Part shown: positions 4,100 through 48,464 of the stretch, piece after piece | Numbering within the stretch: position 1 is the stretch's first letter | Layout: each line of letters begins with the position of its first letter | Assembly: GCA_024402565.1 (NCBI GenBank) | Contig: JAKSTM010000005.1 | Location: 1-64,000 of the forward strand | Source of the DNA: Treponema sp. | GTDB taxonomy: Bacteria; Spirochaetota; Spirochaetia; Treponematales; Treponemataceae | DNA: 64,000 nucleotides | Direction: 5' to 3' | Position numbers and translations under genes: made by a program | The notes under the pieces: model-generated | Told to the model about the DNA's origin: nothing | Databases searched by the model: none | What the model saw: only the letters and a program-made list of their open reading frames with translations

Positions 4100-4960
4100 A
4101 TGGTTATTAATCACAATATGAGCGCTATGTTCGCTCAGCGTTCCCAGGGAATTCAGGATCTGAACCAGCAGAAAAGCATGGAGAAGCTTTCTTCTGGTAT
4201 GAGAATCAACCGCGCTGGTGATGATGCTTCAGGACTCGCAGTTTCTGAAAAAATGCGCGCACAGATCCGTGGTTTAAATCAGGCATCACAGAATGCCCAG
4301 AATGGTATTTCTTTCATTCAGACAACAGAAGGATATCTTCAGGAAACAACTGACATCGTTCAGCGCATCCGTGAACTGGCTGTACAGTCTTCAAACGGTA
4401 TTTACTCTTCAGAAGACCGCATGCAGATCCAGGTTGAAGTTTCTTCTCTTATCGCTGAAGTTGACCGCGTAGCTTCTGCTGCTCAGTTCAACGGTATGAA
4501 TATGCTTACAGGACGTTTCGCTCGCCCAACAGGTGAAAACGTTGTAACAGCTTCAATGTGGTTCCACATTGGTGCAAACATGGACCAGAGATCACAGGTT
4601 TACATTGGAACAATGTCAGCTGCTGCTCTCGGACTCCGCAACGTTGGTGACGAAACAATCATGTCTCTGGAAACTCCAGATGAAGCAAACCGCGCTATCG
4701 GTACACTTGATGAAGCTCTTAAGAAGCTCAACAAACAGCGTGCTGACCTCGGTGCTTACCAGAACCGCCTTGATATGACAGTTAAAGGACTGGATATCGG
4801 TGCTGAAAACCTCCAGGCTTCTGAATCACGCATCCGTGATACAGACATGGCTGCAGAAATGGTTGAATTCACAAAAGACCAGGTTCTCTCTCAGGCTGGA
4901 ACAGCTATGCTGGCTCAGGCAAATCAGTCTTCTCAGAACGTACTTTCACTCCTCCGCTAA
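4100..4960 (+). CDS. flaB: Flagellin, periplasmic flagellar filament core protein FlaB
   Basis: A 286-residue flagellin of spirochaete core-filament length. The N-terminus M-V-I-N-H-N-M-S-A-M-F-A and the segment S-S-G-x-R-I-N-R-A-G-D-D-A-S-G-L-A form D0/D1, the variable middle is short, and the C-terminal helices end S-Q-N-V-L-S-L-L-R. There is no signal peptide, as expected for export through the flagellar type III system. The start is fixed by AAAGGAG six bases upstream. A strong terminator follows at 4983. Displaced copies of the last ten codons recur at 5199 and 5470. Confidence 0.97.
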   Translation: MVINHNMSAMFAQRSQGIQDLNQQKSMEKLSSGMRINRAGDDASGLAVSEKMRAQIRGLNQASQNAQNGISFIQTTEGYLQETTDIVQRIRELAVQSSNGIYSSEDRMQIQVEVSSLIAEVDRVASAAQFNGMNMLTGRFARPTGENVVTASMWFHIGANMDQRSQVYIGTMSAAALGLRNVGDETIMSLETPDEANRAIGTLDEALKKLNKQRADLGAYQNRLDMTVKGLDIGAENLQASESRIRDTDMAAEMVEFTKDQVLSQAGTAMLAQANQSSQNVLSLLR

Positions 4961-4982
4961 GATTAGTTAAAGCAGCATGAAA

Positions 4983-5012
4983 AAAAAGAGCGTCCGTCAG
5001 GGCGCTCTTTTT
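4983..5012 (+). terminator. Intrinsic terminator of flaB (copy 1)
   Basis: Thirteen-pair stem with one G-T wobble, loop GTCA, A-rich 5' arm and T-rich 3' arm (GGGCGCTCTTTTT). It lies 22 nt after the flaB stop. The same terminator with about 100 bp of flanking sequence is repeated at 5621-5650. Confidence 0.93.
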
Positions 5013-5030
5013 ATTTTAAACATATATTTG

Positions 5031-5198
5031 AATGAGCCAGCATAGCGAAGACGCCGTTTTCAGTTTTGATGCAGAAAAAGGGATGCGAAGCGACCTTTTC
5101 TGCTCAAAACTGATGGCGGAACTTCACTACCCGTTTCTTTTTACCGCCGGATCGGTTCCGCCAGCTCAGGCAAATCACGAAGCAGCTTGCTGCGTCGC
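5031..5198 (+). repeat. Palindromic unit 1 downstream of flaB
   Basis: Contains nested inverted repeats: a near-perfect pair of about 20-bp arms beginning CAGTTTTGA and ending AAAACTG (5061-5112), then GGCGGAAC pairing with GTTCCGCC across 5116-5162. This is followed by a flaB-like piece GCTCAGGCAAATCA (5164-5177) and a 21-bp hairpin with arms GCAGC/GCTGC (5178-5198). The unit ends exactly where displaced flaB end a begins. Related units follow at 5299 and 5510. Confidence 0.75.
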
Positions 5199-5228
5199 TC
5201 ACAGAACGTTCTTTCTCTGCTCCGCTAG
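5199..5228 (+). pseudogene. Displaced flaB 3' end, copy a
   Basis: Ten codons TCA-CAG-AAC-GTT-CTT-TCT-and-on that encode S-Q-N-V-L-S-L-L-R followed by TAG, the exact C-terminus of FlaB at 4931-4960. Five codons including the stop differ, all synonymously. Its downstream sequence (GATTAAAGCG and a terminator at 5254) also resembles the flaB 3' flank, so it looks like the 3' end of a diverged flaB allele. Confidence 0.85.
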
Positions 5229-5253
5229 GATTAAAGCGTAAGAATTGCATAAA

Positions 5254-5281
5254 AAAAAGCCTCGCGTAAGCGGGGCTTTTT
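5254..5281 (+). terminator. Intrinsic terminator after displaced flaB end a
   Basis: Twelve-pair stem AAAAAGCCTCGC / GCGGGGCTTTTT with one wobble, loop GTAA, T-run at the end. It holds the same place relative to displaced end a as the live terminator does to flaB, but with a different stem sequence. Confidence 0.85.
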
Positions 5282-5298
5282 GCTTTTAACTCAATATT

Positions 5299-5469
5299 TG
5301 ACTGAGCAAGCGAGTCCATGAAAAAGTTTTCAGTTTTGATGCAGAAATAAGAAGCGGAGCGACTTTTTCTGCTCAAAACTGACGGCGGAACTGCACTTTT
5401 GTAACATTTTACTAAGCCGGACCGGTTCCGCCGGGCTCAGGCAAACCACGAAGCAGCTTGCTGCGTCGC
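5299..5469 (+). repeat. Palindromic unit 2 downstream of flaB
   Basis: Same plan as the unit at 5031: arms CAGTTTTGATGCAG / CTGCTCAAAACTG, then GGCGGAAC and GGTTCCGCC, a flaB-like piece GGCTCAGGCAAACCA (5434-5448) and an identical 21-bp GCAGC/GCTGC hairpin (5449-5469). Middle sequence is diverged from unit 1, so this is not a recent tandem duplication. Confidence 0.72.
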
Positions 5470-5499
5470 TCACAGAATGTTCTTTCATTACTTCGCTAA
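5470..5499 (+). pseudogene. Displaced flaB 3' end, copy b
   Basis: Ten codons encoding S-Q-N-V-L-S-L-L-R plus TAA. Relative to live flaB five codons differ (TCA, AAT, GTT, TTA, CTT), all synonymously, and the pattern differs from copy a. No terminator follows directly; the next palindromic unit begins within about 15 bp. Confidence 0.83.
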
Positions 5500-47158: not shown

Positions 47159-47161
47159 TTG

Positions 47162-47170
47162 TGATATTCT
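47162..47170 (+). promoter_or_regulatory. Extended -10 promoter of cysE, leaderless
   Basis: TGATATTCT (TG-N-TATTCT) six bases before the ATG at 47177, in the 18-bp gap after creD. No Shine-Dalgarno is present. Confidence 0.55.
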
Positions 47171-47176
47171 TGCAGT

Positions 47177-48046
47177 ATGAATATTGACGGACTGATTAAC
47201 GGAATCCTCGATTCCTACGACACTTATGGACTTATCAACAGAAGCGAAACAGAAAACTTTCCGAACCGCCAGAACGTGGTTCAGGTTCTTTCTGATTTAC
47301 AGAGCCTGGTTTTCCCTGGTTTCCGAACTGCTGAAGAAATCTGTCCGTCAAACCTTCGTTATGTAACAGGGCTTAAAGTAAACAGCATCATTGCAACTCT
47401 TACAAAAGAAATTGAAAAAGCCCTGCTCTTCACAATGTGCAGCAAACAGGCAAAAGCACAAGACGCCGTTGCAAACTCACATTGCTTCCGTCTTGCAGAA
47501 AAAACCGCCCTTGCCCTCATTGAAGAAATTCCTGAAATCCGCAGAATGATTTCACTTGATGTCAAAGCTCTTATGGCAGGTGACCCTGCGGCAAAGAGCG
47601 ACGAAGAAATCATTCTTTCATATCCAGGACTTGAAGCAATCCTCGTTCACCGCATTGCTTACTTCCTTTACAAAAACGGAGTACCAATTATTCCGCGCAT
47701 CATGAGCGAACACGTTCACGGCAAAACAGGAATCGACATTCATCCTGGCGCTCAGATTGGTGAAAGCTTTTTCATTGACCATGGAACTGGTATTGTAATC
47801 GGCGAAACCTGTGTAATCGGAAACAACGTTAAAATTTATCAGGGTGTAACTTTGGGAGCTTTAAGCGTAAAGAAAAGTCTTCAAGATAAAAAACGCCATC
47901 CTACAATCGAGGATGACGTTACAATTTATGCCAATGCTACAATTCTTGGCGGCGCCACAATTATCGGCAAAGGCGCCACCATAGGTGGCAATACTTGGGT
48001 GACTGAATCAGTACCTGCAGGTTCAAAGGTATTCAGTAAAGATTAG
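47177..48046 (+). CDS. cysE: Serine O-acetyltransferase
   Basis: A 289-residue enzyme that acetylates serine for cysteine synthesis. An N-terminal helical domain precedes the left-handed beta-helix of hexapeptide repeats (G-A-Q-I-G-E-S-F-F-I-D-H-G-T-G-I-V-I-G-E and on). D-H-G-T-G and the H of E-H-V-H-G are the usual active-site residues. It ends N-T-W-V-T-E-S-V-P-A-G-S-K-V-F-S-K-D. Those last 19 codons recur three times downstream as displaced ends. Confidence 0.95.
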   Translation: MNIDGLINGILDSYDTYGLINRSETENFPNRQNVVQVLSDLQSLVFPGFRTAEEICPSNLRYVTGLKVNSIIATLTKEIEKALLFTMCSKQAKAQDAVANSHCFRLAEKTALALIEEIPEIRRMISLDVKALMAGDPAAKSDEEIILSYPGLEAILVHRIAYFLYKNGVPIIPRIMSEHVHGKTGIDIHPGAQIGESFFIDHGTGIVIGETCVIGNNVKIYQGVTLGALSVKKSLQDKKRHPTIEDDVTIYANATILGGATIIGKGATIGGNTWVTESVPAGSKVFSKD

Positions 48047-48133
48047 AGGCGAGTTTTTTCGATTTTTGCAAAGCAAAAAGGTGAGCCTTTTGCGAACCAG
48101 AAAAAACTCGCAGAGCAACCGAAGGTTGCGACT
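48047..48133 (+). repeat. Palindromic spacer 1 after cysE
   Basis: Long hairpin with outer arms GCGAGTTTTTTC / GAAAAAACTCGC and inner GCAAAAAGG / CCTTTTGC, then a second hairpin GCAACC-GAA-GGTTGC. The spacer ends GCGACT, directly before the displaced cysE codons. Spacer 2 (48191-48278) is nearly the same. Confidence 0.85.
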
Positions 48134-48190
48134 AACACCTGGGTAACAGAATCTGTGCCTGCAGGGTCGAAAATATTTAGTAAAGACTAA
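48134..48190 (+). pseudogene. Displaced cysE 3' end, copy 2
   Basis: Nineteen codons encode N-T-W-V-T-E-S-V-P-A-G-S-K-I-F-S-K-D and TAA. Thirteen codons differ from live cysE (47990-48046); twelve changes are silent (counting TAG to TAA) and one is Val to Ile. Confidence 0.92.
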
Positions 48191-48278
48191 GGGTGAGTTT
48201 TTTCGATTTTTGCGAAGCAAAAAGGTGAGCCTTTTGCGAACCAGAAAAAAACTCGCAGAGCAACCGAAGGTTGCGACT
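48191..48278 (+). repeat. Palindromic spacer 2 after cysE
   Basis: Near-identical to spacer 1 (GAGTTTTTTCGATTTTTGCG... and GAGCAACCGAAGGTTGCGACT), with a few substitutions and one extra A. Confidence 0.85.
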
Positions 48279-48335
48279 AATACCTGGGTGACTGAGTCAG
48301 TACCTGCAGGGTCGAAAATATTTAGTAAAGACTAA
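48279..48335 (+). pseudogene. Displaced cysE 3' end, copy 3
   Basis: Same 18-residue peptide (with Ile) plus TAA. Ten codons differ from live cysE, nine silently. Its first half shares codon choices with the live gene (GTG-ACT-GAG-TCA-GTA) and its second half with copies 2 and 4, a mosaic. Confidence 0.92.
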
Positions 48336-48407
48336 GGGTGAGCCTTCGACTCTTCGGCCCTTCGACAGGCTCAGGGACCTCAGGTGCAGGGACCGAAGGT
48401 TGCGACT
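48336..48407 (+). repeat. REP-like spacer 3 after cysE
   Basis: Different from spacers 1 and 2: it holds CCCTTCGACAGGCTCAGGGA, a REP-like inverted motif, and CAGGGACC 15-mers, but it still ends ACCGAAGGTTGCGACT. So the junction to the displaced codons is constant while the element is not. Confidence 0.82.
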
Positions 48408-48464
48408 AATACCTGGGTAACAGAATCTGTACCTGCAGGGTCGAAAATATTTAGTAAAGACTAA
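48408..48464 (+). pseudogene. Displaced cysE 3' end, copy 4
   Basis: Same peptide (with Ile) plus TAA. Twelve codons differ from live cysE, eleven silently. Its 5' half matches copy 2, except GTA for GTG and AAT for AAC. Confidence 0.92.

What the first reader, a model, noticed from the sequence alone, without database searches (positions are those of the whole stretch)
4931..48464. Candidate new system: REP-anchored replacement of gene 3' ends
Three unrelated genes (flaB, fabZ, cysE) show one plan: live gene with a renewed 3' end, a palindromic or REP-like unit, then the older 3' end with its stop and sometimes terminator. Purely silent divergence means both old and new ends were selected as coding sequence. 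Two models fit. (1) Incoming homologous DNA recombines once in the gene body and once in the REP-like unit, leaving the old end behind. (2) A miniature mobile element targets 3' ends and carries or rebuilds the terminal codons, as integrative elements do at tRNA genes. No transposase is in the window, so an enzyme would act in trans (a RAYT/TnpA-REP protein is a candidate).
Basis: partly seen in the sequence, partly recalled or inferred. Interest (0 to 1): 0.92.

Follow-up and report, generated by a model that had tools for sequence, protein, structure and literature searches.

The report
Hairpin repeats that renew gene ends
In gut Treponema bacteria a short double-hairpin DNA repeat sits right behind a number of unrelated genes and is followed at once by a second copy of that gene's last codons, so it likely inserts into gene ends together with a substitute end that keeps the gene working.

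Summary
In the window, cysE has three, flaB two (plus a stub) and fabZ one downstream copy of the gene's own last codons and stop. Elsewhere in the genus the same plan recurs, including in the isolate Treponema sp. JC4. The "REP-like unit" resolves into a double hairpin, CGAG-hairpin-CTCG then AGCA-hairpin-TGCGAC; in 8 of 20 cores the copied gene end starts 0-2 nt behind that terminus (1.3 expected), and in 3 of 7 fetched later. It occurs behind protein genes and a tRNA gene, sometimes inside genes. In metY the live and left-behind tails encode different homologous peptides, while a protein with a 98% identical body has the older tail type. I read this as a miniature element that duplicates or replaces gene 3' ends, working like fungal mitochondrial elements that swap C-termini. 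The source of the new tail and the enzyme are unproven; a RAYT is not supported. Against one-time replacement: in two relatives the copy matches the relative's own live tail, and 30 hairpin loci of two other genomes show no clear echo.

The parts
4100..4960 (+). flaB, live gene with current 3' end
   Evidence: flagellin families in NCBIfam, the listed ones below their curated cut-offs; sequence
4904..4924 (+). arm X inside flaB; inverted copy (X') at 5026-5046 behind the terminator; 90% complementary
   Evidence: (I18)
5026..5046 (+). arm X' (inverted copy of flaB 4904-4924)
5180..5196 (+). hairpin-2 core AAGCAGCTTGCTGCGTC of first flaB unit; echo starts 2 nt behind it
   Evidence: L001 +1633
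5199..5228 (+). first flaB echo SQNVLSLLR* (5 silent codon differences)
5451..5467 (+). hairpin-2 core of second flaB unit
   Evidence: L001 +1904
5470..5499 (+). second flaB echo SQNVLSLLR* (5 silent codon differences)
5590..5598 (+). stub of a third flaB echo (CTCCGCTAG) followed by a copy of the flaB terminator
29887..30318 (-). fabZ, live gene; stop codon lies inside a predicted hairpin
   Evidence: NCBIfam NF000582 above cut-off
29724..29886 (-). fabZ hairpin unit (degenerate: CGAG..CTCG arms and AGCAGCC..GGCTGTGAT hairpin, not the strict core)
   Evidence: by eye
29700..29723 (-). fabZ echo CLVGSAN* (4 silent codon differences)
47177..48046 (+). cysE, live gene
   Evidence: NCBIfam serine O-acetyltransferase models; best hit TIGR01172 below its cut-off, NF041874 above
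48050..48132 (+). first double-hairpin element behind cysE (CGAG..CTCG, AGCAACCGAAGGTTGCGAC)
48134..48190 (+). cysE echo 1 (12 silent, 1 nonsilent codon)
48193..48277 (+). second element copy (TGAG variant)
48279..48335 (+). cysE echo 2
48336..48406 (+). third unit: different repeat (CCCTTCGACAGGCTCAGGGACC type) ending in the same GGTTGCGAC
48408..48464 (+). cysE echo 3

Best explanation
Behind a number of unrelated genes of gut Treponema sits a short double-hairpin repeat with a sharp right end, and directly after it lies a second copy of the gene's last codons, which likely results from insertion of a small unit that brings or re-makes the gene's 3' end with its stop codon in front of the hairpins. 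Shown: the element family (CGAG-hairpin-CTCG, 2-3 nt, AGCA-hairpin-TGCGAC/TGCGTC), wide presence of its first hairpin in the genus, the fixed right boundary in about half of the cores read, its position behind protein and tRNA genes, and silent-biased differences between the live and the left-behind end. Inferred: that the unit is mobile (bare copies inside hsdM and other genes suggest it); that insertions into gene ends survive only when the gene end is duplicated or replaced; that in some cases (metY) the new end came from a diverged relative, so that the C-terminus itself was swapped; that live and echo tails can later be re-copied onto each other. Untested: the enzyme, the intermediate, and whether the unit moves between species already carrying the tail. 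In effect it would work like fungal mitochondrial mobile ORFs that replace gene C-termini, but without an encoded endonuclease.
For: (1) Echo excess at high score: 6 of 762 genes in G000 vs 0.15 (three are the window's own loci, two others have another likely explanation), 3 of 304 in G001 vs 0.10. (2) Hairpin-first test: of 20 cores AAGCA-N-TGCG[AT]C with stem >=5 in the DNA then held, 8 have a direct repeat (score >=14) beginning 0-2 nt behind the core, 1.3 expected at random positions; five of these eight are flaB cores of three genomes, so they are six loci. A ninth (L181, 13 nt) is visible by eye. Of 7 further cores with stem >=4 fetched afterwards, 3 have one at exactly +0 and 4 have none. 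(3) Silent bias: over 24 live/echo pairs that I compiled, 97 silent and 18 nonsilent codons, 17% silent expected for random changes; 108 of 136 differences at third positions. For the seven of these pairs reached through the hairpin rather than through conserved peptides: 27 silent, 14 nonsilent (same table). (4) MetY (G000 C39): live tail HIDDIIEDISQALAQI*, echo behind the element HIDDIIADLENEFAAK*; P0010, body 98.0% identical, ends HIDDIIADLENGFAAL; of the 29 closest proteins compared (own included, two odd-length ones left out) 26 have the EDIS tail, 3 the ADLE type. (5) Isolate Treponema sp. JC4 (L269): flaB echo with 8 silent and 0 nonsilent codons; its live 42-nt tail is 1 nt from that of L271 although the gene bodies differ at 122 of 819 sites, and the last 30 nt of its echo equal the live tail of L261, body 126 of 819. 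(6) flaB of G000 vs MB2.91_2: 39 of 831 body and 5 of 30 tail sites differ, p=0.015; none from nt 652 to 824, six after. (7) tRNA-Leu of G001: TGCTCGGCAAGG once in the tRNA and four times behind the four elements. (8) carB of G020: echo with 11 silent and 3 nonsilent codons. (9) 11 distinct hairpin-1 and 9 distinct hairpin-2 stems (the pattern demands pairing).
Against: G169 (CysE 98% identical) has the same element at cysE, but its echo shares G169's own tail changes and shows ordinary decay; MB2.91_2's two flaB echoes equal its own live tail: an echo is not simply the pre-insertion end. In G014 groEL and G001 L135 the coding part differs silently while 16 and 21 nt behind the stop are identical, and G014 L338 is identical over 27 nt: these look like local duplication, not import. 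The cysE tail evolves fast even between relatives without a complete element (G084, G094, G070: 0.23-0.30 in the tail vs 0.11-0.14 in the body), which weakens any tail-jump argument there. For G000 flaB neither live tail nor echo is clearly closer to the nearest relative, and part of the flaB body is patchy too. In G063 and G102, 23 of 30 CGAG-hairpin loci have a called gene end upstream and none has a clear echo (best scores 24 and 12). About half of the strict cores read have no echo. Y1_Tnp absent from most carriers. No empty site of the same species, no movement seen.
Confidence: 0.55

Rival explanations
1. Local duplication plus strain recombination. The hairpin element inserts (or replication slips at the hairpins) and duplicates 13-60 nt of the gene end; the live gene is later converted by DNA from related strains, with the tract ending at the hairpins, which gives silent differences while the stranded copy stays behind.
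For: Identical noncoding sequence beside silently differing codons (groEL of G014, L135 of G001), an identical 27-nt copy (L338), in-frame murI duplication with 2 silent changes, echoes that match the same genome's live tail.
Against: MetY tail differs in 8 of 10 residues while the body is 98% identical to a protein with the other tail; JC4's two flaB tails match tails of two other genomes whose bodies differ by about 15%; in G000 C76 and C32 the sequence between tail and element is not part of the repeat.
Confidence: 0.35
2. Double-crossover model of the first reader: incoming homologous DNA recombines once in the gene body and once in a shared hairpin element, leaving the old end behind.
For: Same element at cysE in G000 and G169 with different tails; array units share the element and differ in tails.
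Against: Needs an element already lying upstream of the old tail; no imported body seen next to the new tail in metY at the protein level.
Confidence: 0.15
3. Assembly artefact of mixed strains in a MAG.
For: Several of these loci lie near contig ends in G000 (C13, C29, C52).
Against: Same anatomy in independent assemblies with lineage-specific sequences: G001 (6 contigs), G020, G014, G169, MB2.91_2 and the isolate JC4.
Confidence: 0.02

Closest known systems
Mobile ORFs (mORFs) of fungal mitochondria that replace gene C-termini (Glomus atp6, atp9, cox2, nad3; Allomyces atp6), PMC3630166 (passages read)
   Same: A foreign in-frame C-terminus in the live gene, an insert behind it, and the native C-terminus stranded downstream; for atp6 the paper reports that a C-terminal copy and its counterpart in a relative differ only synonymously.
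   Different: There the insert encodes an endonuclease (LAGLIDADG or GIY-YIG); here it is a noncoding double hairpin of about 45-85 bp in a bacterial chromosome, at many genes, with tandem re-copying.
REP / REPIN elements with RAYT transposases (PMC3116915 passages; PMC3733652 abstract, one section and a word search)
   Same: Short palindromic repeats mainly downstream of coding regions, often paired; REPIN clusters can be tandem repeats that include flanking sequence; REPs can lie inside genes and GTAG REPs can supply a stop codon to the gene.
   Different: No Y1_Tnp match in G000 or G001; fixed TGCGAC end abutting a copy of the gene end. In PMC3733652 the words duplicat, C-terminal, target site, Treponema and spirochet do not occur.
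Integrative elements that enter the 3' end of tRNA or protein genes and restore it from attP (recalled)
   Same: Gene end regenerated, old end displaced, tandem arrays at one site, a tRNA-Leu 3' end among the targets.
   Different: No room for an integrase in the unit, insert between stop and echo about 40-300 bp, the repeated core is different for each gene.

Membership tests
REP/REPIN | short palindromic repeat in many copies, mostly extragenic | tested here: met
   CGAGTTTN{3,22}AAACTCG in 88 of 98 genus genomes, 0-57 copies; reversed-pattern control 0-8. Only 7 exact copies in G000
REP/REPIN | GTAG or CGTC tag next to the hairpin | tested here: inconclusive
   element ends TGCGAC or TGCGTC; resemblance to CGTC judged by eye against the text of PMC3733652, stems and tails there differ
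REP/REPIN | cognate RAYT (Y1_Tnp) in the genome | tested here: not met
   0 matches in G000, G001, G004, G015, G020, G063, G102; 1 each in G006, G014; G000 is 86% complete
C-terminus-replacing mobile ORF | stranded older C-terminus downstream of insert, new in-frame C-terminus in gene | tested here: met
   metY, carB, cysE, flaB
C-terminus-replacing mobile ORF | insert encodes a homing endonuclease | tested here: not met
   inserts of about 40-300 bp, too short; judged by length, no family search
C-terminus-replacing mobile ORF | stranded tail resembles relatives, new tail does not | tested here: inconclusive
   met for metY at the protein level; undecided for flaB of G000 and JC4, whose bodies point to neither tail donor; not for G169 cysE, where the echo follows the live tail
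Integrative element at gene 3' end | integrase with conserved attachment core | tested here: not met
   repeat core differs for each gene; recombinase families other than Y1_Tnp were not searched
MITE | terminal inverted repeats and target duplication of constant length | tested here: not met
   repeat lengths about 13 to 60 nt; ends CGAG and TGCGAC are not inverted copies of each other

The most novel reading that the evidence does not exclude
A genus-wide bacterial system of miniature hairpin cassettes that carry interchangeable gene 3' ends (the last 4-20 codons with the stop, or a tRNA 3' end) between strains and species, stacking them behind the gene, so that C-termini are replaced and can revert by loss of the cassette, moved by an enzyme acting in trans.
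Probability: 0.33. Interest if true: 0.92.

Novelty: new variant of a known kind. Interest (0 to 1): 0.74.

Why it matters
If right, a noncoding element of about 60 bp can enter core genes (the list includes flaB, fabZ, groEL, a transketolase-like gene and a tRNA) because it leaves them with a working end. That would explain how palindromic repeats colonise dense bacterial genomes, would give a source of abrupt C-terminal change (metY), and would make the question of how REP-like repeats without a transposase move directly testable through their sharp right end.

Tried and rejected
RAYT as the enzyme: searched, absent in most carriers. Rfam: no family in the window at gathering threshold. The flaB unit elsewhere in the genome: no match outside its own array. 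Pattern search for the cysE hairpin: only the window. CGAG hairpins in G063 and G102: no clear gene-end echo; the gene calls failed for these genomes, one search was read by eye, and one search repeated the test with gene calls trained per genome. G006 gave a further type (CGAGTTTTAGCG..CGTTAAAAAACTCG with flanking AGGTCTGTCC repeats); 8 of its loci were read, its 20 extra stretches entered only the pattern scans. Pure neutral decay of a duplicated end: rejected by the silent bias. Constant-length target duplication: rejected by length. LIDKL (L130) is a simple AT-rich tandem repeat, dropped. L115, L136, L044, L062 and L141 hits look like paralogues or low complexity and were left out of the pair table; the JC4, L266 and G169 pairs were not in it either. 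Among 80 flaB loci from named genomes, 4 show a stop-anchored copy of at least 5 residues (L251, L266, L269, L324); L324 is only six residues and has no such hairpin by eye. Literature: word searches for Treponema with REP, palindrome, hairpin or MITE terms gave 0 papers; a six-term search for duplicated C-termini with integrase gave 4 papers, none on this by title (listing only). This covers only the open-licence library, so it does not show that the thing is unpublished.
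Full report
What was checked. The window is the first 64 kb of contig C65 of a 2.64-Mb, 119-contig metagenome-assembled genome. Its closest named flaB relatives are mostly rumen and gut Treponema. The differences are silent except one V-to-I in each cysE copy.

Is it more than chance? I called genes by codon usage in about 1.05 Mb of this genome and compared each protein's C-terminus, anchored at a stop, with the 600 bp behind the gene; the control re-paired genes and downstream regions 20 times. 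At score >=35: G000 6 of 762 genes vs 0.15; G001 3 of 304 vs 0.10; G020 0 of 225 vs 0; G004 0 of 142 vs 0; G015 0 of 160 vs 0.25. E. coli K-12: 0 of 147 vs 0.05, but 6 vs 1.45 at the low threshold of 20. Three of the six in G000 are the window's own loci; of the other three one is clean, one is a long tandem duplication and one a likely paralogue; one of the three in G001 is a likely paralogue. At score >=24 G000 has 8 vs 1.95. So the scan alone extends the finding modestly; the hairpin-first test below extends it more. A nucleotide-level scan agrees (score >=20: 5 vs 0.33 in G000, 5 vs 0 in G001), again with paralogues or low complexity among them.

The unit. Folding and reading of the new loci showed a recurrent double hairpin. 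The CGAGTTT..AAACTCG part occurs in 88 of 98 genomes of the genus, 0 to 57 copies each, 7 in G000. Behind it lies AGCA-hairpin-TGCGAC (or TGCGTC); 20 pattern entries, some of them nested or overlapping variants of one element, have 11 different stems in hairpin 1 and 9 in hairpin 2 (the pattern itself demands pairing). The decisive geometric fact is that the copied gene end begins 0-2 nt behind ...TGCG[AT]C: 8 of 20 cores with direct-repeat score >=14 against 1.3 expected. Five of the eight are flaB cores of three genomes (two in the window, two in MB2.91_2, one in L254); the others are groEL and L220 of G014 and carB of G020. Of 8 further stretches fetched around pattern hits, 7 held a core with stem >=4; 3 of these (metY, C52, G014 L338) have a repeat starting exactly at the boundary and 4 do not.

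Where it sits. Behind protein genes: cysE, flaB, fabZ (degenerate unit), metY, a transketolase-like gene (C76, KRL*) and others in G000; groEL and two others in G014; carB and cysE in G020; L135, L139, L151 and others in G001. The gene ending AMKPVL carries an echo in both G000 and G001. Behind a tRNA-Leu in G001 there are four elements, each followed by the tRNA's last bases TGCTCGGCAAGG. Elsewhere: inside hsdM, breaking it, with no duplication seen; in frame inside an oxidoreductase-like gene; in frame at the 5' end of murI in G014 with a 33-nt duplication differing at 2 silent sites. So the end of a gene is a frequent but not the only site. In G063 and G102, 23 of 30 CGAG-hairpin loci have a called gene end upstream and none has a clear echo.

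Both ends were coding. Over 24 pairs, 97 codons differ silently and 18 nonsilently, against 17% silent expected. These pairs come largely from a scan that favours conserved peptides and include several copies from one array, so the p-value printed there should not be quoted. For the seven pairs reached through the hairpin (G014 L220, groEL and L338; G000 C76, metY and C52; G020 carB) the count is 27 silent to 14 nonsilent (same table). The isolate JC4 adds a flaB echo with 8 silent and no nonsilent codons. In G169 the echo shows ordinary decay.

Replacement or duplication? Evidence for exchange of the tail alone: in metY the live end (EDISQALAQI) and the stranded end (ADLENEFAAK) are different homologous peptides; among the 29 closest proteins compared, our own included and two odd-length ones left out, 26 have the EDIS tail and 3 the ADLE type, and P0010, with a body 98.0% identical to ours, has the ADLE type. 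On the body tree the EDIS label needs 3 changes, but supported branches force only one. In JC4 the live flaB tail (42 nt) is 1 nt from that of L271 and the last 30 nt of the stranded tail equal the live tail of L261, although both gene bodies differ from JC4's at about 15% of sites; these are the best of 70 comparisons and were not tested against chance. FlaB of G000 and MB2.91_2 differ at 39 of 831 body sites and 5 of 30 tail sites (p=0.015), but the body is patchy too. Evidence for local duplication: sequence behind the stop identical beside silently changed codons, an identical copy in L338, and echoes that match the same genome's own live tail in MB2.91_2 and G169. For cysE the tail is faster than the body in all ten genome pairs, also where no complete element is present; G084 and G094 keep a GGCGAGTTTTTC-like remnant behind the stop and G070 none. 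I therefore commit to an element that duplicates or replaces gene ends, with re-copying between live and stranded tails, and leave open how often the new tail is foreign.

Comparison. In how it works it resembles fungal mitochondrial mobile ORFs, where a foreign C-terminus is added in frame and the native one is stranded (PMC3630166, passages read). In what it is made of it resembles REP and REPIN repeats (PMC3116915 and PMC3733652: passages, abstract and one section), but no Y1_Tnp match accompanies it in G000 or G001. It meets neither definition in full.

Limits. One MAG at 86% completeness, 40% of it scanned; no same-species strains; recombinases other than Y1_Tnp not searched; names of genes outside the window (groEL, carB, murI, hsdM, transketolase, oxidoreductase) are mine, recalled from partial sequence without a family search, except metY, whose close homologues are named O-acetylhomoserine aminocarboxypropyltransferase by a source.

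Noticed in passing
window 4904-4924 and 5026-5046; L125 near 160-290; L266 and L269 behind flaB: A stretch of the coding sequence (flaB in several genomes; also the AMKPVL gene) recurs as an inverted copy just behind the terminator, so gene end and terminator lie in the loop of a long stem. Similar stop-spanning hairpins occur at fabZ, L070 and cysE of G020. Meaning unknown.
   Followed up: partly
window 10263-10680: Nested long palindromes between argD and the next gene, with AAATCAAATAAA-type ends; possibly another miniature element.
   Followed up: no
L345 and L346 behind cysE (G084, G094): A remnant of the left hairpin arm behind the stop codon without the rest of the element or an echo; either a lost or an incomplete element.
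   Followed up: partly
L219-L230 (G006): A related but distinct element, CGAGTTTTAGCG..CGTTAAAAAACTCG, with GGCTCGTGC hairpins and AGGTCTGTCC-type direct repeats; G006 has 32 pattern hits, most of this form.
   Followed up: no
L187/L188 (G063): A composite hairpin array whose direct repeat includes the ribosome-binding region before the next gene's ATG, as if gene starts were copied there.
   Followed up: no
window 48336-48585: Dense CCCTTCGACAAGCTCAGGGACC-type repeats behind cysE, a different repeat family that also ends in GGTTGCGAC before an echo.
   Followed up: no
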